DNA from: Cyanobacteria bacterium RM1_2_2
Lineage (GTDB): Bacteria > Cyanobacteriota > Cyanobacteriia > Elainellales > Elainellaceae
Assembly: GCA_012033495.1 (NCBI GenBank)
Contig: JAAUQT010000031.1
Coordinates: 1 to 36,835, forward strand
Direction: 5' to 3'
DNA length: 36,835 nucleotides
The notes beneath the pieces were generated by a model. The model was given only the letters and a program-made list of their open reading frames with translations. It searched no databases and was not told the origin of the DNA. The position numbers and the translations under genes are program-made. Shown here piece after piece: positions 25,622 through 36,835 of this stretch. Numbering within the stretch: the stretch's first letter is position 1; the number at the start of each line of letters is the position of its first letter.

Positions 25622-27352
25622 CTAATCTTCTAATTCCTCTAATTCCTCTAACCGATCGCTAATTTTGCCTCTGACGGCTGAAATGGCCACCACTCGCGGA
25701 GACGCTAGATAGTTTTGGGCAGTCGGATCACCGCTTCTACCTTGAAAGTTGCGATTGGTGGCATAGAGTCCTACTTCTCCCGGTTCCAAAACGCCCAGTC
25801 CAGCATTAATGCAAGCTCCGCAGCCCGTTTTCAAGATTTGCGCCCCCGCTTGTTCTAGGATTTGCAAATATCCTAATGCCTCTGCCTGCTGTTTGATCTC
25901 CTGCGAAGCGGGCACAACAAACAAACTTACCCCCGGAGCCACCTGCCGCTTGCGCAACACGGCTGCTGCCTGAGCCAGATCATAGAGTTTTCCACCCGTA
26001 CACGATCCAATGAACGCGCGCGTAATCTTAACGTCTTCTAGTTCGTGTATGCCAACGACCTGATCGGGCTTCGGCGGACGAGCAATCTGGGGTTCTAAAT
26101 TACTTAAATCAAATCGATAAATTTGCTCATATTCAGCATCCCAATCGCCTACCAGTTCATTGTTCTGAAGCGTAACCGCTCTGCTGTACATATAATTCGT
26201 AGTGATCTGATCAGGCGGAATTAAACCGCACATCGCGCCGCATTCAATCGCCATATTCGCTAACGTCATTCTTTCATCAATGGGCAGTTGAGCAATTACG
26301 CTACCGTGAAATTCCATCACCTTGCCAATAGCCCCGTCACAGCCAATTCGTCCCAGAATAAACAGCATGATATCTTTAGCGCTGATGTGGTGGGGTAACG
26401 TCCCGGTTAATTCAAATCGCAGAGTAGTGGGAACGCGAAGCCACATATCTCCAGTTGCAAACAGGTTGGCCATATCGGTGGTGCCGATTCCAGTCGAGAA
26501 GCAGCCAAACGCGCCGTAGGTGCAGCTATGGGAGTCGGTTCCGGCAATCACCATTCCCGGACGGATAAACCCTTTTTCGGGCAGCAAAACATGACAAATC
26601 CCGGCGGCATCTCCGGGAGAAACCACATCCAGCAAATGACATCCCTGCTGCTGTGCAAATTCCACCATCTGTTGATGCATCGTGACAGCTTTTGGATCGG
26701 CTCGAATATCGTTAATTTGAATAAAATGATCGGCAACTAACACAATCCGGTTTGCATCCCAAACTTTCGCAGTATTGCCAAACTGCTGGTAAAACAACTG
26801 CCCAACTGCCCCCGCAATCGCGTCATGGGACATCGCCAAATCAACGTTGACAAATACCACATCTCCGGGCTGCACGTAGGCATGACCCGAAGCTTGCGCC
26901 AACAGCTTTTCTGCCAAGGTCATCGGGCGGGGTGGCGTTTGGCTGACCGGAATTGCGGTTTGTTCACTCAGGCGGTTTTGGTTAAAGGCAAACAGTCCGC
27001 CTGCTGCCACAATTGCGGCTTCTACTGGATTTTGGCGAGGTTGCCCGACAATTTCAAGCGGTAGTCCAATGTTGATGCTGTTACGGTAAAAGATTTCGGC
27101 AAACGATCGCGCCTTCACTTTCTGAATACCTGCTGCTTTGAGGGCAATGGGAGCAATTTCCCGACTGGAACCACAGCCAAAATTGTCGCCTGCTTCAATT
27201 ACGCTGTAGTTCAACAAATTGCCTGCCCCAATTAAATGCTCCAACGCATAATGCTTCAAATGATCGGGATCAAGATTCGTTCCCCGTTTGGCGGGAATAA
27301 TGTCGTCTGTATTGATGTGATCGCCAAGTTTGAGAACAGAGTCAGAGTTCAT
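25622..27352 (-). CDS. isopropylmalate dehydratase-like protein, LeuD-LeuC fusion (HphCD-like)
   Basis: A 576-residue [4Fe-4S] hydro-lyase of the aconitase superfamily that should move the hydroxyl group of a 2-substituted malate. The swivel (LeuD) domain comes first: [38 protein letters not shown] and [16 protein letters not shown]. After a linker near residue 140 comes the LeuC part, with [16 protein letters not shown] and the cluster cysteines in [11 protein letters not shown] and [10 protein letters not shown]. Housekeeping cyanobacterial LeuC and LeuD are two proteins, so this one-chain form in LeuD-LeuC order suggests a special pathway; HphCD of homophenylalanine formation is a known one-chain case. 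The ATG at 27352 overlaps the end of the upstream dehydrogenase gene, which points to coupled translation. The open frame reaches 27391, but that would overlap by 50 bases. Confidence 0.88.
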
Positions 27353-28394
27353 AGGATTGAGAAGTGATTTCATCCAATAATAGCTTGACAAAATCTTGGG
27401 TGGTAACGGGTTTGCTAGCCACGAGATCGGCCGTTCCGTAGCCCTGCGCCAATACGCGCTCCTCTGCCTGCATGATTAAATCTCCTGCCCTATATTCGCC
27501 CCACTGTTGCAGCATCAAAACGAGGCTATTGATTGCCCCTAAAGGATTCGCAATGCCTCGCCCAGTGATATCAGGGGCGGTTCCGTGAACAGGTTCGTAG
27601 ATGCCAAATCCTAGTTTATTTAAGCTTGCCGAACCTAATAAACCAATCGATCCCACAATCGCCCCACCAATGTCACTCAGAATATCTCCAAACAGATTAC
27701 TCGCTAAAATCACATCAAAATACCGAGGTTTCACGATGAGTTGCATCGCTAGGTTGTCCACTAGCATGGGTTCAATTTGGACATCTGGATATTTTACAGC
27801 TTCCTCCATCACCATTCCAGTCCACGGTAAATGGGGCAAGGCATTTTCTTTGTGGGCAACCGTCAGCAATTTTCGCCGCTGCTGTGCTTTTTCTAGGGCA
27901 ATTCTGGCAATCCGCCGGATCTCCCAATCGTGATACTGCATCGTGTGATAGCCATAGTCACCCTGAGCATCTGCCGACCGCCCGGATGCCCCAAAATAGA
28001 TGCCGCTGACCAACTCCCGCACAAACAAAATGTCGGTTCCAGAGAGGCTTTCAGGTTTGAGCGGAGACTGGTGCGACAGGCTGGCAAATGGACGGATCGG
28101 ACGCAAATTGGCAAAACAGTCAAATCGCTTGCGCAGTTCCAGCAACCCACCTTGGCTCACAGCCCCCAGCAGAATTCCATCACTGCCTTCACAGGATTGA
28201 GCCGTAATATCTGGGAATAGTTCACCATATTTTTCACGGGCAGGTTGACCGATCAACGCTTGGTCGATTTGCACTGAGAAACCTTGCTGTTGTGCAACAT
28301 GCTCAAGTACCATCACCGCTGCTGTAATTACTTCAATCCCGATGCCCTCACCAGGCAATGCAACGACACGATAACGGCGGCTGATTGGGTTCAT
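27342..28394 (-). CDS. isopropylmalate dehydrogenase-like enzyme (LeuB/HphB family), divergent
   Basis: A 350-residue NAD-dependent beta-decarboxylating dehydrogenase. Catalytic marks are kept: FANLRPIRP and the nearby Arg residues, [11 protein letters not shown] (Arg, Tyr), a Lys in VAHKENALP, the metal-binding Asp residues in VDNLAMQL and [11 protein letters not shown], and the NAD site [18 protein letters not shown]. It is not a standard LeuB. The segment before LLELRKR is about 13 residues shorter ([14 protein letters not shown]), and the residue that lines up with Glu87 of the Thermus enzyme, which touches the isopropyl group, is Gln. That suggests another side chain. A Shine-Dalgarno (GGAAGTGAG) precedes the ATG. 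The gene lies 28 bp after the polyketide synthase gene and overlaps the dehydratase gene. Confidence 0.88.
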
Positions 28395-28422
28395 CTCACT
28401 TCCTGTTCTCTCATTAATTCGT

Positions 28423-31400
28423 CTAGGCTAGCTGACTCAGTTCCGCTTGAATAGACGCAACGGTCTGCTGAATTTGGGCTTCCGTATGTAAACAGGTGAC
28501 GAAAAACCTTAGACGCGACGCATTGTAAGGAACGGAAGGATAGACCATTGGCTGTACGGTGATGCCGCGATTCAACAGCAAGCGAGAAAGTTTTACCGCT
28601 TTATAAGGCTCGCCGACAATAATTGGAATCACTGGCGAATCATGGCTGCTGCCGGTGTTTAGCTTCTGTTGCGCCAACTTCAAAAAGAGGCGAGAGCGAG
28701 CCTGTAAGGTTGCAACTCGATCGGGTTCTTGCTGTAAAAGTTGCAGGGCAGCAAGGGCAGCCGCCGTATTGGCAGGTGACATGCCGACACTGTAGACAAA
28801 TCCGGGAGCCGTATACTTCAAATACTGCACGATCGCTTTGCTGGCCGCAATGTAGCCGCCACAGCTTGCAAACGACTTACTTAACGTCCCCATCCACAGG
28901 TCAACATGGGCAGCAGTGATGCCGAAGTGTTCGCTGATGCCTCGACCTGTTCCGCCCAGTGTGCCGATCGAATGCGCTTCATCAACCAGCAAAAACGTTT
29001 TGTAGCGCTGCTTCAGGGTGACAATTTCTGGCAGAGGCGCAATGTCGCCATCGGTGCTGTAAATGCCTTCAATTGCAATCAGCACTTTCTGGTAGTGGCT
29101 GCGATGTTTTTGTAATAAAAGCTCCAACGTTTGCCAATCGTTGTGCGGAAACTCCATTGCGGTGGCTTGTGACAGTTGACAACCTTGACGAACGCTATTG
29201 TGGCTGAGCGCATCGAATAGAATCAAGTCTCGCTCACCAAACAAATGCCCGATTGTGGTGACATTTGTGGCATGTCCACCAACATAGATGATGCAGTCTT
29301 CAACATTCAAGAAGTCTGCAATGAAGCGTTCTAGCTTCAAGTGAATCGGACGTTCACCCGCTACCACACGGCTGGCAGAAACAGAAGTACCATATTGATC
29401 AATAGCTGCCTGTGCTGCTCGTGACACAGTTGGATCACCTGACATTCCCAGATAGTTATAGCTAGCGTAGCTGATAAATTCTTTTCCATTAATCTGAGTT
29501 GTGTCTTTAGCAATGCCATCATGAACTTCAAAAAATGGATTGCCTAATTGTTCTAATCGCTCTAGATCGGAACATAAGCTCAAATATTCTGAGGATTGTT
29601 CAAACTGGTAGAATTGGGCTGGAATTTCTAAATTTTTAGGTTCTAAACTTATAAATTCTGAACTTATAAATTCTGAACTTGTGAGTTCTAAACCTGTCGA
29701 TGAAGGGACAGGCTCAGAGATTTTAGATTCAGTGGGTGTCACCACAGAGAGGGCGGCTTGATTGAGACTGATTATATCCCTGCCATTCCCGTTCACTTCA
29801 AGCGTCAATTCTTCGGAACTCAGTTGAGGCGTTGCAATTGGCGTAACCAGAACATCAGCAGATGCTTGTGAATGTTGGCTTTCTTGTGAATGTTGGCTTA
29901 AGTAATGGGCTAGGGCTGCCACGGTTGGATAATCGAAGGTCAACGTTTGGGGAATTGTGTAACCAAGACTTGATTCTAGGCGATTCCTAAATTCCACTGC
30001 CATTAAGGAATCCATGCCCAGATCTGCAAAATTCTCCTGGGGATTGATTGCTTCTGCGCTGCTAAATCCCAACACTTGCGCCAACTGTCGCTGAATCTGC
30101 TGCTGCAAAGTGGTCATCTGATCACGGGTTAAGTGCTGCGGCAATGGAGGTTGTTTCAACGCTGAAGGCTGATTTGATGGTAGAGAGGGTTTCTGCTGCG
30201 GAGCGATCTCATCTAATAGAGGGAACGGTTGAGTGAACTGAGTTCGATACATTGACCAATCAATCGGCAGAACGCTGACCTGAGCCAGATTTTGCTGAAG
30301 CAACAGATTGAGAGCCTGCACGCCTCGTTGCGGCTCAATCAACCTCATACCGCTTTGGGCGAGGCGCTGCTGATTCGTTTGCGTCAGTTCAGCCGCCATG
30401 CCTACTTCTGCCCATGCTCCCCAGTTGATACTGAGTCCCGGTAATCCTAACTGCTGACGATAGTGGGCTAACGCATCGAGAAACGCATTGGCGGCGGCGT
30501 AGCTCCCCTGCCCGACTGAACCGATCACGGCGGCAATCGACGAAAAACAAACAAACAAATCCAGCGGCAAGTCTTGGCTCAATTGGTGTAAGTTCCAAGC
30601 ACCGCGCACTTTTGCTGCCATCACGGTTTCAAATCGCTGCCACGTTTGCTGGTGCAGGAGTCCGTCATCCAAAACGCCTGCTGCATGAATAATGCCGCGT
30701 AATGGCATTTTCTGTGGCTCTGCTGAGTGGGGCTCTGCTGAGTGTGGTTCTGCTGGAGATGCTGCAATTGCCAGCAGGTTTTTCACCTCGGTTGGGTTAG
30801 CCACATCCGCTTGAACAATTTGCACCGTTGCACCTAACTTTCTCAGTTCAGCAATGCAGGCTTCAGCGGCAGGAGAAGGAGCGCTGCGCCCCGCTAAAAT
30901 CAGATGGTGAGCGCCTTGTTCAACCAGCCAACGAGACACTTTGAGTCCGAGTCCGCCCAGTCCTCCTGTAATCAGATAGCTGCCGTCTGGTCTGATGACG
31001 GGCTGCCGAGATGGATTAGGAACAGTTAAAACAACTTTACCGACATGCTTGGCTTGGGCCATGTAGCGAAAGGCGTGTACGGCATCAGTAATACCAAACA
31101 CAGTGCAAGGCGGTGGTTGCAATCTACCCTGCTGAAATTGCAGCATCAATTCTGTGAGTAAAGCCTTAATGAACAGTGGGTTCTGTTGCGCAATTTCTAA
31201 CAGGTCAAATGGCAAGTAGTTCACATCTGCTCGCGCCTGTCGTACCTGTTCTGCATCCCAAATCCCCACTTTACCAATTTCTACAAACTGTCCGCCTGTT
31301 GCCAGCACTGACAGACTATTTGGGATAAACTCACCGTTCAAACTATTGACAACAATATTGACCCCTTGATGATCCGTTAGCGTTCTCACTTGATCAACAA

Positions 31401-34400
31401 AATCTAGCGTGCGAGAGTTCATCACATAATCCACGCCAAGGGATTTCAAAAAATTCCACTTACTGGGGCTGGCCGTTGCAAAGACTGTTGCTCCTGCCTG
31501 TTGCGCCAACTGCACTGCCGCTAAACCAACTCCCCCTGCCGCTGCATGAATCAGCACCCGGTCGCCTGCCTGAATGTTCGCTAGCTTGTGCAGCCCATAG
31601 TAGGCCGTCAAAAAGGTGGTCGGAATCGATGCGGCGGCTGTATCGCTAAGATTGGCAGGTTTGGCGATCACGAAGGCAGCCGGAACCGTCACAAACTGCC
31701 CCAAACTGCCGGTTGCCGCGACAGCAATGACAACATCTCCCACCTGCTGATCAACCCCTGCCCCAACTGCGGTAATGATTCCAGCACATTCCCAACCAAA
31801 CTGAACTTCCGTCGCTTCTGTCAAGCCCATCTGCTCCAAATGGGGTTTCAACATTCCCAGCGCGTTCAGTACATCTCGAAAGTTCAGTCCTGCGGCTCGT
31901 ACCTGAATTTCCACCTCTCCCACAGCAGGGGGGCGTCGCAAGCTCGGCATCAATAAAAGATTGTTGAGCATCCCATACTGAGAGATTCTAAGCTGGAAGC
32001 TTTCGGTTTCGGGCTGGGCTTCAGGAATCGACAACCGCTCCTGATCGGCTTCCTGTTGCCGCACGAACCGCGCCACATAGCGGTCTCCCTGTCGGTAGGC
32101 AATTTGATCCTCTAGTTCGGTTGCGGGTGTAGGGGCGTTTAACTCGTTCAGCAGGGCTGCGATATCCACCTGAGCAGGATCAAGGTCAATGCAAGTTGAT
32201 TGCAATTCGGGATGCTCCAACCGAATCACGCGATGCAGCCCCCACAGTGGAGCTTGTTGAATCTGAATCGGCAACCAAGCTGCTCTCACGGTCTGTGCCC
32301 CTTGCGTCATCAGCCATAGGCGCGGATTCCATCTTTGCGTTGTTAATGCCTGCACGAGATGCAACACACTACCGCAGATTTGGGTTTGTTGGCACGGATC
32401 AAATGAGGCGTTAAGGGAGTTGTGATCGCTAGCGTGATTCAAACTCCAAAGATGCACGACCTGATCTGGGATGGTGTCGATATTTTGGAGTAAAATATCT
32501 TGCAGTAATTGGTGTATGAATTCAGGTTGAGTGGAATCGACAAAATAGGTTTCCTGCTTTGTCTGATTTCGGATATCATCTCGCTGATTTGCATCTTCAA
32601 ACACCAGGATACAGCGGCTTCCTTGCTGAGTCAGGTGATTCGCTAACTCGGTTCCCAAACCATGCTGGTCTGCAAAAATTAGCCATAGTTTTCCTGGATT
32701 CGATACCGTAGTTTGGCTGAGCGCTTGTGGCTTCCAATTAATTTCATAAAAATCGGTTGCTGATGTTGCAGAGTCACCAAACAATCGTTGTAGTGATTGT
32801 GAGTGAATCTGTTTTAACGTGAAGCCCTTAATACTAGCGCTTAAGTTTCCTCGGTCATCAACCAACCATAAATCGGCTTTCAAAAATGCATGATTCGCGC
32901 TATTTTCCTGCGCCTCTCTCAGTTCAACAAAGCACCATAGCTGCTGACCTATCTGGCGATGTAGCTGCAATGTATCAATGCTAACGGGCAGAAATGACAT
33001 CTCAGACTGAGCCGTACCCATTGCAGCAGCGAGTAATTGAAAGCAGGCGTCTAATAAAACCGGATGGATCTGAGATGAATCCGTGAGTGATTCCGGTAAC
33101 TGAATTCGCCCTAATGCATGCCCCTGCCCTCGCCAGAGTTGCCGAATTGCTTGAAAAGATTTGCCGTAGTGTAGCCCTTGGGCTTCAAGCTGCCGATAAT
33201 AGGTTGAGATTGGCGTAGAGTCAGGAGTTAAACTCGCTTGACGCTGGGCAAGATCGAACGGAATCAGAGGCTCTCTAGTTTCTAACGGCTCTAATTTACC
33301 AGACGCATGACGAACCAAGGGCTTTTCTAAACCATTTTGTTCACTAAAAATCTCAACTGCATATTCTGACTGTTCGTTTAAACGTAGCCTGATCTGTAGG
33401 ATTTGAAGTTGATCATTCAGTAGCAGCGGTTGTTCAATCTCGAATTGACTCAGTTTTAGTGAATTAGACGGATGTTGATGTCTTCCTGCTGCCAGCATCA
33501 TTTCTACAAAGGCAGCGGCAGGAAACACCGATTGATTCAGAATACAGTGATCAGCCAGATAGCTAGGAGCGTTCTTACTCACTTGCGCCTGAAAACAAAT
33601 TTGTTGTTCTGTAATCTGCACGAGCTGTTGCAGCAAAGGGTGGAAGGATCGCTGCTGTTGGCGGGTTGTAGAGGATGGCAGCGACACAGCATCAGGCTCC
33701 CACCAGAATCGCTGACGCTGAAACGGATAGGTAGGCAACGGCAGCCATTCACTAGCATCACTGAAGTCAGCCCCATTTGCCCAATTTACGTTAGCCCCCT
33801 GCACATAAAGCTGCCCTAAACTTTGCAGAAGTGGCTGCCAATCTGACTGCCCTGGACGCAAGCTTGGTAGCCACATTCCATTAGGTTGAGAAGCTCGCCC
33901 CATGCCGGATAGGATCGGTTTAGCGCCAATTTCTAAAAAGATTTCACAGCCCTGTTGCTGAAGAGTTTCTACTGCCTCGGCAAAGCGCACCGCCCGACGC
34001 ACCTGATCACGCCAATAGTCTGGCGTTGCGATCAAATCATGAATCAGCGCACCTGTTACGGTAGAGACGATCGGAATTTGCGGTAAGTGATACGAGATCT
34101 GCTTTGCCACTTGCATAAATGCGGTCAGCATCGGTTCCATTAATGGCGAATGAAACGCATGGGAAACATTCAGCGCAGTTGTGCTGATGCCTTTTTTAGC
34201 TAGCTCGGCTGCAATGCCGTCAATGGCGGCTTTTCGTCCAGAAATGACGGTATTCTGCGGCGCATTCACGGCAGCAATTGCAACTTCTGTCTCTTTGCCT
34301 TGCAGAAATGCACTCACCATCGTTACATCTGCCATCACCGCCACCATTGCCCCATCCGTTGGCAGCGCTTGCATCAACCGACCGCGAGCCGCCACCAGCT

Positions 34401-36420
34401 TTAGCGCATCTTCTAAGCTGAATACTCCGGCAATGCAGGCTGCCACATACTCGCCAATGCTGTGTCCCGTCACGGCAGACGGACGAATTCCCCAAGCCAT
34501 CCAGGTTTGGGCTAGGGCATACTCAATTGCAAACAGGGCAGGTTGGGTGTAAATCGTTTGATTGAGCAGAGCATCAGGTGTAATATGCTCGAAACGCTGG
34601 CTGGCTTTGCGGTGCTGCTTCCCAGACTTGCCGTTGTTGCCCCACATCACGGCTAGAATCGAGCTTCCTAACTCTTTCCGCAAAAGTTGATCGCACTGAT
34701 CAAGAGCAGCTTTGAAGATCGGGCAAGTCTGGTAGAGTTCGCGTCCCATGCCGATGTACTGCGAGCCTTGACCTGTGAACAGAAAAGCCACCGGCAGCGC
34801 TCGATCGGCAGCAGTACCGCGAGCCACCGCGCCCATCGCCGGACTGTTTGCTTCCCCTTGGCTAAAACTCACCAACCGTGCCTGCAACTCTGCCACCGAC
34901 TCCGCCGCCACCGCCAACCGCTGCGAAAAGTGAGTTCGTTTCGTTTGGGCAGCGCGACAAAGCTGAGGCAGAGAAACGGCCGGATGCTTTGCCAACTCAT
35001 CAACATAGCGCTGCACCAACGCCTGCAAAGCAGCCGGACTCTTCGCCGATAGCGTTAGCAAAGGTGGGTTAATTTGAGGCGGTTTACTTTTTGCCTGCTT
35101 GCCCTTGCCCTTCCCCGCTTTCTGCTTTTGCGGCGGTGCTTCTGCCATCACCACATGGGCATTGGTGCCGCCAAACCCAAACGAGTTGATGCCTGCAATC
35201 CGAGGCTGATCATGGTTCTGCCAATCTGTTAGTTGAGTTTGTACTCGCAAACCAAGCTGGGTAAATGGAATCTGCGGATTGGGTTGCTGAAAGTGCAAGC
35301 TGGGTGGGATTTGCTGATGTTTGAGCGCCAAAGCTACTTTGATCAACCCTGCCACGCCTGCTGCGGTTTCCGTATGCCCAATGTTGGTTTTAACAGAACC
35401 GATCGCGCAAGGTTTGTCTGCATCGCGTCCCGCTGATAGCACTGCGCCCAATGCCTCCGCCTCGACTGGATCACCCAACTTCGTGCCTGTGCCATGCGCT
35501 TCGATGTACTGCACCTGCGCCGGAGCCACGCCCGCCCGTCGGTAAGCCTCTCGCAGGACGGCAGCCTGCGCCTGCGGATTCGGAGCCGCCAAACCGTGAC
35601 TGAAGCCATCCTGGTTCACCGCAGTTCCGCGAATCACGGCATAAATCGGATCATTGTCCGCCCTTGCCTCAGACAGCGGCTTCAGTAGCACCAAACCCGC
35701 ACCCTCACTGCGGACATAGCCGTCTGCCGTTGCATCAAAACTTTTGCAGCGCCCCACCCCCGACATAAACCCGCCCTTGCTGAACCCTGCCGTCACGGTT
35801 GGCAACAGCAGCACATTCACTCCACCCGCCAGCGCTAAGCTCGATTCGCCACACCACAGGCTTTGACACGCCAAATGCACCGCTACTAAAGACGACGAGC
35901 AAGCCGTATCAACCGCCAAACTCGGCCCCTTAAAGTCGAAGACATAGGAAATGCGATTGGCCGCAATGCAGTTGCCCGTCCCGGTGGTGGCGTAGGGGTC
36001 ATTGACCGGATGCTGCCAGAGTCGAATTGAGTAATCGTGGGTGCCGATGCCGATAAACACCCCAGTACGGCTGCCGCGCAAGCCATCTGGAATTTGGCCA
36101 GCATCCTCCAACGTTTCCCAAGCCACTTCCAGCAAGAGCCGTTGCTGCGGGTCCATGGTGATCGCTTCGCGGGGGGCAATCCCAAAAAACTGCGGATCAA
36201 ACTGATCAACCGCCTCCAAAAAACCACCCCATCGAGTGTTGGTCTTGCCCGGTTTGGTCGGATCAGGATCATAGAATTGCTGCACATCCCAGCGGGAATC
36301 GGGCACTTCGGTGATGGCATCAACCCCGTTACAGAGCAACTGCCAAAATGAAGCTGGATTGTGGACACCTCCAGGAAAACGGCAGCCAATCCCAATAATG
36401 GCGATGGGTTCTAACTTCAT
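28423..36420 (-). CDS. type I polyketide synthase, KS-AT-DH-ER-KR-ACP, fused to a C-terminal alpha-oxoamine synthase
   Basis: 2665 residues, one complete fully reducing module. KS 1-430: Cys174 in DTACSSS, His309, His349. AT about 545-905: Ser654 in GHSIGEY, and HAFH (754-757), which marks malonyl-CoA. DH about 925-1205: His958 in DHCILNQSVFP (Asn for the usual Gly) and Asp1124. An inactive KR-like structural part, then ER about 1475-1800 with HAAAGGVGLAAVQLA. KR about 1810-2060: GGLGGLG, an LDD motif (1917-1919, the type giving a 3R alcohol), Ser/Tyr1974/Asn1978. ACP: Ser2138 in DLGMDSLM. After a 120-residue linker, a PLP enzyme (about 2270-2665) with DEAHSIG and Lys2515 in GTLSKSFAS joins the acyl chain to an amino acid with CO2 loss. 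It has no loading domain and no thioesterase; release is by the PLP domain. It is the first gene of the operon. Confidence 0.95.
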   Translation of the reverse strand: MKLEPIAIIGIGCRFPGGVHNPASFWQLLCNGVDAITEVPDSRWDVQQFYDPDPTKPGKTNTRWGGFLEAVDQFDPQFFGIAPREAITMDPQQRLLLEVAWETLEDAGQIPDGLRGSRTGVFIGIGTHDYSIRLWQHPVNDPYATTGTGNCIAANRISYVFDFKGPSLAVDTACSSSLVAVHLACQSLWCGESSLALAGGVNVLLLPTVTAGFSKGGFMSGVGRCKSFDATADGYVRSEGAGLVLLKPLSEARADNDPIYAVIRGTAVNQDGFSHGLAAPNPQAQAAVLREAYRRAGVAPAQVQYIEAHGTGTKLGDPVEAEALGAVLSAGRDADKPCAIGSVKTNIGHTETAAGVAGLIKVALALKHQQIPPSLHFQQPNPQIPFTQLGLRVQTQLTDWQNHDQPRIAGINSFGFGGTNAHVVMAEAPPQKQKAGKGKGKQAKSKPPQINPPLLTLSAKSPAALQALVQRYVDELAKHPAVSLPQLCRAAQTKRTHFSQRLAVAAESVAELQARLVSFSQGEANSPAMGAVARGTAADRALPVAFLFTGQGSQYIGMGRELYQTCPIFKAALDQCDQLLRKELGSSILAVMWGNNGKSGKQHRKASQRFEHITPDALLNQTIYTQPALFAIEYALAQTWMAWGIRPSAVTGHSIGEYVAACIAGVFSLEDALKLVAARGRLMQALPTDGAMVAVMADVTMVSAFLQGKETEVAIAAVNAPQNTVISGRKAAIDGIAAELAKKGISTTALNVSHAFHSPLMEPMLTAFMQVAKQISYHLPQIPIVSTVTGALIHDLIATPDYWRDQVRRAVRFAEAVETLQQQGCEIFLEIGAKPILSGMGRASQPNGMWLPSLRPGQSDWQPLLQSLGQLYVQGANVNWANGADFSDASEWLPLPTYPFQRQRFWWEPDAVSLPSSTTRQQQRSFHPLLQQLVQITEQQICFQAQVSKNAPSYLADHCILNQSVFPAAAFVEMMLAAGRHQHPSNSLKLSQFEIEQPLLLNDQLQILQIRLRLNEQSEYAVEIFSEQNGLEKPLVRHASGKLEPLETREPLIPFDLAQRQASLTPDSTPISTYYRQLEAQGLHYGKSFQAIRQLWRGQGHALGRIQLPESLTDSSQIHPVLLDACFQLLAAAMGTAQSEMSFLPVSIDTLQLHRQIGQQLWCFVELREAQENSANHAFLKADLWLVDDRGNLSASIKGFTLKQIHSQSLQRLFGDSATSATDFYEINWKPQALSQTTVSNPGKLWLIFADQHGLGTELANHLTQQGSRCILVFEDANQRDDIRNQTKQETYFVDSTQPEFIHQLLQDILLQNIDTIPDQVVHLWSLNHASDHNSLNASFDPCQQTQICGSVLHLVQALTTQRWNPRLWLMTQGAQTVRAAWLPIQIQQAPLWGLHRVIRLEHPELQSTCIDLDPAQVDIAALLNELNAPTPATELEDQIAYRQGDRYVARFVRQQEADQERLSIPEAQPETESFQLRISQYGMLNNLLLMPSLRRPPAVGEVEIQVRAAGLNFRDVLNALGMLKPHLEQMGLTEATEVQFGWECAGIITAVGAGVDQQVGDVVIAVAATGSLGQFVTVPAAFVIAKPANLSDTAAASIPTTFLTAYYGLHKLANIQAGDRVLIHAAAGGVGLAAVQLAQQAGATVFATASPSKWNFLKSLGVDYVMNSRTLDFVDQVRTLTDHQGVNIVVNSLNGEFIPNSLSVLATGGQFVEIGKVGIWDAEQVRQARADVNYLPFDLLEIAQQNPLFIKALLTELMLQFQQGRLQPPPCTVFGITDAVHAFRYMAQAKHVGKVVLTVPNPSRQPVIRPDGSYLITGGLGGLGLKVSRWLVEQGAHHLILAGRSAPSPAAEACIAELRKLGATVQIVQADVANPTEVKNLLAIAASPAEPHSAEPHSAEPQKMPLRGIIHAAGVLDDGLLHQQTWQRFETVMAAKVRGAWNLHQLSQDLPLDLFVCFSSIAAVIGSVGQGSYAAANAFLDALAHYRQQLGLPGLSINWGAWAEVGMAAELTQTNQQRLAQSGMRLIEPQRGVQALNLLLQQNLAQVSVLPIDWSMYRTQFTQPFPLLDEIAPQQKPSLPSNQPSALKQPPLPQHLTRDQMTTLQQQIQRQLAQVLGFSSAEAINPQENFADLGMDSLMAVEFRNRLESSLGYTIPQTLTFDYPTVAALAHYLSQHSQESQHSQASADVLVTPIATPQLSSEELTLEVNGNGRDIISLNQAALSVVTPTESKISEPVPSSTGLELTSSEFISSEFISLEPKNLEIPAQFYQFEQSSEYLSLCSDLERLEQLGNPFFEVHDGIAKDTTQINGKEFISYASYNYLGMSGDPTVSRAAQAAIDQYGTSVSASRVVAGERPIHLKLERFIADFLNVEDCIIYVGGHATNVTTIGHLFGERDLILFDALSHNSVRQGCQLSQATAMEFPHNDWQTLELLLQKHRSHYQKVLIAIEGIYSTDGDIAPLPEIVTLKQRYKTFLLVDEAHSIGTLGGTGRGISEHFGITAAHVDLWMGTLSKSFASCGGYIAASKAIVQYLKYTAPGFVYSVGMSPANTAAALAALQLLQQEPDRVATLQARSRLFLKLAQQKLNTGSSHDSPVIPIIVGEPYKAVKLSRLLLNRGITVQPMVYPSVPYNASRLRFFVTCLHTEAQIQQTVASIQAELSQLA

Positions 36421-36835
36421 AGAATTGATTCGATCGGGAGATTCAACCGAGACGCGATCGGGACGGGAAACCGCCTTCGATCACAGAGTTTAGGCAAGTT
36501 TAGCTCACGTAGGATACCATGATCACCGTTCAACTCAGGTTTTCACCGATTTGCAACCGCCAAACTTTAAGATTGACTGCTTCATAGAGCAAGTAGCCGT
36601 CCTCCATCATGGGTAAATCTTGTAGAGCAGGCTCCTAGCCAGCACGGGTAGGTTGCCCACCTGACATTCACAATTCAAATCGAATCGCTATAGAATCTTT
36701 GAATCAATTTTTATGAAATAGCGGGAAAGGGATGCTAGGAACAATGGCTCATTGTGCGGCAATTATTTTTATTTTTAAAACCCACTCATCTTGAGTTTGA
36801 ACGAGCCGAAAATTAATTTTCCTTGTTTTTCAATT
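36421..36835. other. upstream region of the polyketide synthase operon
   Basis: About 415 bases that should hold the operon promoter. Near the gene there are GCGATCGGGACGGG-type sequences. A minus-strand mini-frame at 36530-36610 gives MMEDGYLLYEAVNLKVWRLQ and a few more residues; it has a stop just upstream and no ribosome-binding site. The far end is AT-rich (36690-36835), a possible promoter zone. No gene or riboswitch was recognised. Confidence 0.4.

What the first reader, a model, noticed from the sequence alone, without database searches (positions are those of the whole stretch)
25622..36420. Operon joining a one-module PKS-oxoamine synthase to isopropylmalate-type chain-extension enzymes
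Seen: three minus-strand genes with a 28-bp gap and an 11-base overlap. Known: alpha-oxoamine synthases (for example CqsA, serine palmitoyltransferase, PigH) release acyl chains as alpha-amino ketones. LeuB/LeuCD-type pairs add one carbon to 2-oxo acids, as in homophenylalanine (hph) and 2-oxobutyrate (citramalate) formation. Inferred: the operon makes its own unusual amino acid and couples it to a reduced polyketide or fatty acyl chain, giving an amino ketone or sphingoid-like or CAI-1-like molecule. I know of no described cluster with this combination. The missing 2-oxo acid synthase (LeuA-like) and transaminase may lie beyond the right edge or elsewhere in the genome.
Basis: partly seen in the sequence, partly recalled or inferred. 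Interest (0 to 1): 0.88.

Follow-up and report, generated by a model that had tools for sequence, protein, structure and literature searches.

The report
Cyanobacterial polyketide-to-amino-lipid pathway with own amino acid
Some cyanobacteria carry a conserved set of genes that appears to build a fatty chain, make an unusual extra-long aromatic amino acid, and probably join the two into a sphingosine-like lipid whose structure is still unknown.

Summary
In detail: a PKS (KS-AT-DH-ER-KR-ACP) fused to an alpha-oxoamine synthase (AOS), then a LeuB-like and a LeuD-LeuC fusion gene. The last two look like HphB and HphCD, enzymes of homo-aromatic amino acid synthesis; other leuB, leuC and leuD genes lie elsewhere in the genome. 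The missing synthase was found: an HphA-like gene on contig C181, divergent from a fatty-acyl-AMP ligase and a second reducing PKS. Contig C62 carries a ketosynthase and an SDR whose best solved relative is the 3-ketosphinganine reductase TSC10. In a single-contig relative (G024) all parts sit within 35 kb. In 388 sampled genomes of the class, HphA occurs in 21 and close AOS in 18, 15 shared; those 15 HphA form a clade. Six of 21 carriers tested, two of them single-contig, have no NRPS condensation domain. Best reading: a polyketide sphingoid-like pathway, as Pseudomonas SgaABC, with its own homophenylalanine/homotyrosine supply whose likely user is the AOS. That last step is inferred: relatives without Hph genes have a very similar AOS, so serine remains possible. 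Ten searches of an open-access library listed no characterised cluster of this kind.

The parts
28423..36420 (-). PKS-AOS gene, 2665 aa: KS-AT-DH-ER-KR-ACP-alpha-oxoamine synthase
   Evidence: Pfam; KS Cys/His/His, AT GHSIG and HAFH, ER, KR, ACP DSL and AOS PLP-lysine motifs present
35290..36411 (-). KS domain (residues 4-377)
   Evidence: PF00109/PF02801
33796..34785 (-). AT domain (546-875); HAFH motif, malonyl type by a recalled rule
   Evidence: PF00698; motif
32788..33642 (-). DH domain (927-1211)
   Evidence: PF21089/PF14765; strict HxxxGxxxxP motif not found
31027..31920 (-). ER domain (1501-1798)
   Evidence: PF08240/PF00107/PF13602
30406..30984 (-). KR domain (1813-2005)
   Evidence: PF08659
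29899..30102 (-). ACP domain (2107-2174)
   Evidence: PF00550
28426..29565 (-). AOS (serine-palmitoyltransferase-like) domain, PLP lysine at residue 2515
   Evidence: PF00155; model pLDDT 88, nearest folds ThAOS and SPT 3a2b; best PDB sequence hit SPT
27342..28394 (-). HphB-like (isopropylmalate dehydrogenase family)
   Evidence: PF00180; below the LeuB cut-off; motifs of the own LeuB kept, 13-residue loop missing as in two NRPS-linked HphB
25622..27391 (-). HphCD-like LeuD-LeuC fusion; likely ATG start at 27352
   Evidence: PF00694 + PF00330; cysteines 464, 524, 527 shared with the own LeuC
36421..36835 (.). upstream region to the contig end; no further gene of the set in it

Best explanation
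The operon is part of one conserved pathway that is spread over three contigs in this genome. FAAL and its ACP activate a fatty acid; PKS1 (C181) and PKS-AOS (window) each add a reduced malonyl unit; the fused AOS releases the chain by decarboxylative condensation with an amino acid, giving an alpha-amino ketone; the KDSR-like SDR (C62) reduces it to a 1,2-amino alcohol. HphA (C181), HphCD and HphB (window), with a general aminotransferase (not searched for), lengthen phenylpyruvate or 4-hydroxyphenylpyruvate to homophenylalanine or homotyrosine, most likely the amino acid that the AOS uses. The product would be a sphingoid-like lipid with a phenethyl side chain where sphinganine has CH2OH. 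Shown: gene and domain content, co-occurrence, linkage, absence of condensation domains in some carriers. Inferred: order of steps, substrates, product.
For: Gene set in the own genome: C179, C181, C62. Together at G024 2522873-2557877, single contig. HphA divergent from FAAL-PKS in 13 of 15 genomes, AOS-HphB same strand within 500 bp in 10 of 15, HphCD near AOS in 4 and near HphA in 4 others: partner switching among the same genes. HphA in 21 and AOS (68% or more) in 18 of 388, 15 shared, 1 expected; these 15 HphA form a clade, 96/99, apart from the other 6, whose hph genes lie beside NRPS or NRPS-like genes. HphA keeps A159 and S242 and a small residue at 73, not the HCS/IPMS residues. Condensation domains absent from 6 of 21 carriers, including single-contig G024 and G193. 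AOS (37 genomes) and SDR (38) share 32 of 388, within 1 kb in 14; the own SDR's best PDB hit is TSC10, E 6e-35, next 2.5e-27.
Against: Close AOS occurs without Hph genes in 3 of 18 sampled genomes (G173, G214, G242) and HphCD was not found in 7 of 16 genomes reached by name (six no match, one only a 43% hit; one is G214 again, one a 0.9-Mb assembly). FAAL-PKS relatives (43-51%) also occur in Hph-minus G214, G391, G398 and G399. Hph-plus and Hph-minus AOS mix in one clade, at least two changes. No pocket position separates them cleanly; V337, invariant in 14 Hph-plus rows, is also V in 2 of 6 Hph-minus PKS rows and in serine-using SPT 3a2b. SgaB, the characterised analogue, prefers serine over Ala and Gly. 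In G138 an AMP-binding/ACP/thioesterase protein lies just upstream of HphCD and could be another user. In G193, G141 and G118 the loci are far apart. The own genome has NRPS genes. No metabolite data.
Confidence: 0.55

Rival explanations
1. The pathway makes a true sphingoid base: the AOS uses serine (or Ala/Gly), and the Hph product enters the same molecule elsewhere, for example as the acid loaded by the FAAL after loss of its carboxyl carbon.
For: AOS closest by sequence to SPT; SDR closest to TSC10; AOS pocket alike in Hph-minus relatives; SgaB prefers serine; HphA is the direct neighbour of the FAAL gene in 13 of 15.
Against: Among the G024 cluster proteins given to Pfam, no enzyme that would turn the 2-oxo acid into a FAAL substrate was recognised; the AOS is the only one recognised there as using an amino acid.
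Confidence: 0.25
2. The Hph genes supply an NRPS or NRPS-like enzyme and only happen to sit beside the PKS-AOS.
For: Known role of hphA/B/CD; own genome has 16 condensation-domain matches on C52, C53, C75, C89 and C301; an AMP-binding/ACP/thioesterase protein beside HphCD in G138.
Against: Six of 21 carriers, two single-contig, have no condensation domain; these HphA form a separate clade; linkage to PKS-AOS and FAAL-PKS recurs across genera and families.
Confidence: 0.09
3. The HphA/B/CD set lengthens some other 2-oxo acid (branched or longer), so the building block is not aromatic.
For: Position 157 is Cys in 11 of 15 here against K, E, N or D in the 6 others.
Against: A159 and S242 kept in 21 of 21; IPMS and HCS residues absent; HphB loop deletion shared with two NRPS-linked enzymes.
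Confidence: 0.11

Closest known systems
PfSgaABC, Pseudomonas fluorescens MYb115 (PMC12134224; abstract, passages and sections 8-9 read)
   Same: Type I PKS, AOS and a KDSR-homologue SDR make sphinganines from a polyketide chain
   Different: There one iterative PKS, separate AOS, serine; here AOS fused to the PKS, FAAL-primed second PKS, HphA/B/CD genes
hphA/hphB/hphCD of Nostoc punctiforme and anabaenopeptin clusters (PMC12961565, parts 1 and 3 of 6 read; PMC6562525 passages)
   Same: Same three enzyme types; by name HphCD is one protein there too; conserved HphA pocket residues
   Different: Known sets feed NRPS; this set is tied to PKS-AOS and FAAL-PKS, and its HphA is a separate clade
Fungal sphinganine-analogue pathways (fumonisin, sphingofungin; as cited in PMC12134224 section 8)
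   Same: PKS-derived chains with KDSR homologues in the cluster
   Different: Eukaryotic; separate AOS and no homo-amino acid genes, both recalled
Vitroprocine amino-polyketides of Vibrio (recalled; search listing only)
   Same: Recalled as PKS plus AOS with an aromatic amino acid
   Different: Recalled as using Phe/Tyr directly

Membership tests
HphA/HphB/HphCD homologation pathway | All three enzymes in the genome, distinct from other leuA-, leuB-, leuC-, leuD-like genes | tested here: met
HphA/HphB/HphCD homologation pathway | LeuD-LeuC fusion with the cluster cysteines | tested here: met
HphA/HphB/HphCD homologation pathway | HphA pocket residues (A73, D157, A159, M186, S242 in N. punctiforme) | tested here: inconclusive
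   A159 and S242 kept 15 of 15; 157 Cys in 11 of 15; 186 Leu in 14 of 15, as in 4 of 6 others; 73 Ser
HphA/HphB/HphCD homologation pathway | Converts Phe or Tyr to the homo-amino acid | not testable with these tools
   needs enzyme assay
PKS-derived sphingoid pathway (SgaABC-like) | Type I PKS coupled to an AOS | tested here: met
   fused in one protein
PKS-derived sphingoid pathway (SgaABC-like) | KDSR-homologous SDR | tested here: met
   own C62; TSC10 best hit; not on the window contig
PKS-derived sphingoid pathway (SgaABC-like) | AOS uses serine | not testable with these tools
   no residue comparison was decisive
Anabaenopeptin cluster | hph genes beside NRPS genes | tested here: not met
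   no NRPS gene among the window ORFs given to Pfam; 6 of 21 carriers lack condensation domains
CqsA/CAI-1 synthase | AOS closest to CqsA | tested here: not met
   CqsA E about 6e-28 against SPT 9e-66

The most novel reading that the evidence does not exclude
A new class of sphingoid lipid in which serine is replaced by a dedicated homo-aromatic amino acid: an AOS pathway with its own non-protein amino acid supply, conserved in several cyanobacterial families and assembled by a FAAL-PKS/PKS-AOS line.
Probability: 0.5. Interest if true: 0.85.

Novelty: new variant of a known kind. Interest (0 to 1): 0.72.

Why it matters
A 2022 study states that for cyanobacteria neither a sphingolipidome nor a genetic basis of sphingolipids had been reported (PMC8895605, passages). 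The AOS plus KDSR-like pair found here gives direct candidates, and the Hph-linked branch predicts an aromatic-headed lipid that can be sought by mass spectrometry in cultured strains. It would also show homo-amino acid synthesis serving something other than an NRPS.

Tried and rejected
Considered and rejected: (a) plain leucine operon, because other leuB, leuC and leuD genes exist. (b) Tartrate or homoisocitrate dehydrogenase for the second gene: scores far below cut-off. (c) The C227 gene as the missing synthase: it passes the homocitrate synthase cut-off. (d) NRPS as the general user of the amino acid.

Led nowhere: AOS pocket comparison (37 of 38 rows grouped, row L251 left out; its assembly is only 0.9 Mb); structure of the membrane protein beside the SDR, pLDDT 49, not searched; paper searches for cyanobacterial AOS-PKS clusters; the FAAL review holds none of six terms. 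The plasmid search gave 712 records, all under 60% identity. The position 73 printed is one column off; by the numbering that fits the other residues it is the Ser/Ala/Asp column.

Circularity noted: the 15 'F' HphA were labelled by genome carrying the AOS, so '15 of 15' is not a test. The overlaps HphA/AOS (15 of 21 and 18; hypergeometric 1e-19) and HphCD/AOS (14 of 22 and 18; 6e-17) are, without correction for relatedness.

NRPS or NRPS-like neighbours of the other six hph sets were verified by Pfam.

Full report
Observation. The three genes are as described. The PKS is KS-AT-DH-ER-KR-ACP with a C-terminal AOS domain. The second gene is a LeuB-family dehydrogenase, the third a LeuD-LeuC fusion. 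Among the NCBIfam matches shown, neither reaches an equivalog cut-off; the third passes three broader subfamily models. The window is a whole contig, C179, of a draft genome of 5,540,289 bases.

Identity of the two small genes. Papers describe hphA, hphB and hphCD of Nostoc punctiforme as the route from Phe/Tyr to homoPhe/homoTyr (PMC12961565, parts 1 and 3 of 6; PMC6562525, passages). The third gene has the fused architecture that the name HphCD implies. HphB keeps motifs of the own LeuB but lacks a 13-residue loop, as do the two NRPS-linked HphB and the G024 one compared. The genome has another LeuB on C84 and LeuC/LeuD on C93.

The missing synthase. The HMGL family occurs five times in the genome. 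One, on C181, is a 417-aa protein that matches homocitrate and isopropylmalate synthase models far below cut-off and aligns with HphA of NRPS-linked hph sets. It is divergent from a FAAL gene followed by a second PKS, ACP-KS-AT-DH-ER-KR-ACP. The gene on C227 passes the homocitrate synthase cut-off.

One pathway, several loci. In G024, a single-contig genome, HphCD, HphB, PKS-AOS, HphA, a FAAL-PKS fusion, a KS protein, a START/cyclase-like protein, an SDR and a membrane protein lie between 2522873 and 2557877; six other genes sit between HphB and PKS-AOS. The own genome repeats the KS, cyclase, SDR, membrane-protein row on C62 (48-65% identical). So the window's genome holds the set on three contigs.

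Conservation. Three searches used the same 388-genome sample of the class. HphCD at 70% or more: 22 genomes, two by fragments only. AOS at 68% or more: 18, one a fragment; the PKS fusion was seen in 16, and in G166 and G261 the gene runs off a contig end. HphA at E 1e-90 or better: 21. HphA and AOS share 15 (1 expected). The six HphA genomes without close AOS are G097, G129, G136, G271, G289 and G338; condensation domains lie beside their hph genes in five, and in G289 two AMP-binding/ACP proteins, the second cut by the stretch end. G097 also has a FAAL-KR-ACP protein (FAAL 47%) some 7 kb from HphB. The HphA of these six fall outside the 15-member clade (96/99) and five of their HphB form a clade (99/99); HphCD is less resolved. 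Linkage differs between genomes: AOS-HphB within 500 bp on one strand in 10 of 15, HphA-FAAL divergent in 13 of 15, AOS-HphCD within 10 kb in 4 (G000, G024, G099, G118), HphA-HphCD within about 1 kb in 4 (G109, G125, G141, G223). Against: in G193, G141 and G118 some of the loci are 0.4 to 2 Mb apart; HphB was not seen in the stretches examined of G113, G166, G193 and G202; FAAL not in those of G099 and G166. In the remaining 7 it was not found; one is G214 again and one is a 0.9-Mb assembly. HphA was not searched in these 16 handles.

Not for an NRPS in general. Of 21 genomes with AOS and Hph genes (six of them known to me only by HphCD, G202 only by HphA), 6 have no condensation domain: G024 and G193 (one contig each), G109, G125, G166 and G261. 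The own genome does have NRPS genes (16 matches), so sharing there is not excluded. In G138 an AMP-binding/ACP/thioesterase protein of 917 aa lies about 350 bp upstream of HphCD on the same strand; it may use the same 2-oxo acid or amino acid.

The AOS-SDR pair. The SDR (E 1e-75) occurs in 38 and the AOS (E 1e-100) in 37 of 388 genomes, 32 shared. From the coordinates in those calls they lie within 1 kb in 14 genomes. The own SDR's best solved relative is TSC10, 3-ketodihydrosphingosine reductase. The AOS model (pLDDT 88) is closest to ThAOS and SPT. This resembles SgaB and SgaC of Pseudomonas fluorescens, where a PKS, an SPT-type AOS and, presumably, a KDSR homologue make sphinganines from serine (PMC12134224, sections 8 and 9). 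In G024, G141 and G193 the SDR lies in the FAAL-PKS locus.

Which amino acid? The Hph set supplies one, and the AOS is the only G024 cluster protein in which I recognise an amino-acid substrate. But AOS proteins of Hph-minus relatives are up to 72% identical and no pocket position separates the groups cleanly; Hph-plus and Hph-minus mix within the PKS-fused clade (100/100); and FAAL-PKS relatives occur without Hph genes. So either AOS of this clade accept aromatic amino acids in general and Hph changes which one, or the AOS uses serine and the Hph product goes elsewhere. I put the first, with the pathway frame, at 0.55 and the second at 0.25.

HphA specificity. In 15 HphA of AOS genomes and 6 others, A159 and S242 of the characterised enzyme are kept in all 21; 157 is Cys in 11 of 15 against K, E, N or D in the 6; 186 is Leu in 14 of 15. 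Residue 73 is Ser in all 15 by the alignment. The N. punctiforme sequence itself was not at hand; numbering was carried over from the paper. This fits an aromatic substrate but does not prove it.

Accessory genes. A GT-C (PMT_2) family lies within about 3 kb of the AOS or HphB in G024, G109, G141 and G145, and of HphCD in G193; a GT4 family within about 1 kb of the AOS in the first four (Pfam run on the GT-C of G024, G109 and G141 and the GT4 of G024 and G109). A PagL-like outer-membrane family lies by AOS or HphB in G024, G141 and G223 (Pfam on G024 only). This hints at a glycosylated membrane lipid; none of it is in the window.

Literature. Ten searches of the open-access library listed no cluster that joins hph genes to a PKS-AOS; only the top 20 rows were seen. 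Subscription journals and cluster databases were not searched. A 2022 paper states that no genetic basis for cyanobacterial sphingolipids was reported and points to a second AOS in Moorea (PMC8895605, passages); AOS genes about 2 to 3 kb from the SDR in Moorena loci here (L276, L283, L292) may be such genes.

Limits. Statistics are not corrected for relatedness. All functions are by homology.

Noticed in passing
L260, L263, L274, L276, L280, L283, L284, L292, L294, L298, L299, L301, L303: AOS within a few kb of the same KDSR-like SDR in Moorena, Acaryochloris, Calothrix and others (stand-alone or multidomain): candidates for the unknown sphingolipid genes of cyanobacteria.
   Followed up: partly
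L049:11064-13817 (G138:C37): AMP-binding/ACP/thioesterase protein directly upstream of HphCD; the same layout as enzymes recalled to couple aryl 2-oxo acids. A possible second use of the Hph product.
   Followed up: partly
L015:5699-14187 (G000:C181): FAAL and PKS1 are one protein in most relatives seen but split here by a frame change near a run of six T; G145 is split at a similar place. Error or real is unknown.
   Followed up: no
L035 (G240:C109, 3447 bases): HphB and HphCD pieces 93-96% identical to the window in a genome placed in another genus, HphCD with a broken frame; recent transfer or binning mix-up.
   Followed up: no
L190:3409-5277 (G000:C62): 622-aa helical, probably membrane protein without Pfam match, kept beside the SDR in G024, G173 and G214; model too poor to search (pLDDT 49).
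   Followed up: partly
L190:28-1929 (G000:C62): A second FAAL-like gene (633 aa, AMP-binding) on the SDR contig.
   Followed up: no
L191-L194 (G000:C52, C53, C75, C89): NRPS genes of unknown product on short contigs of the window's genome.
   Followed up: no
L059 (G338:C1): HphA beside an NRPS gene that is intermediate between the two HphA groups in sequence and tree.
   Followed up: partly
L060:7359-12514, L114:16265-19214: Glycosyltransferases and, in G024, an Asp/Asn beta-hydroxylase-family gene near the PKS-AOS, suggesting later decoration of the lipid.
   Followed up: partly
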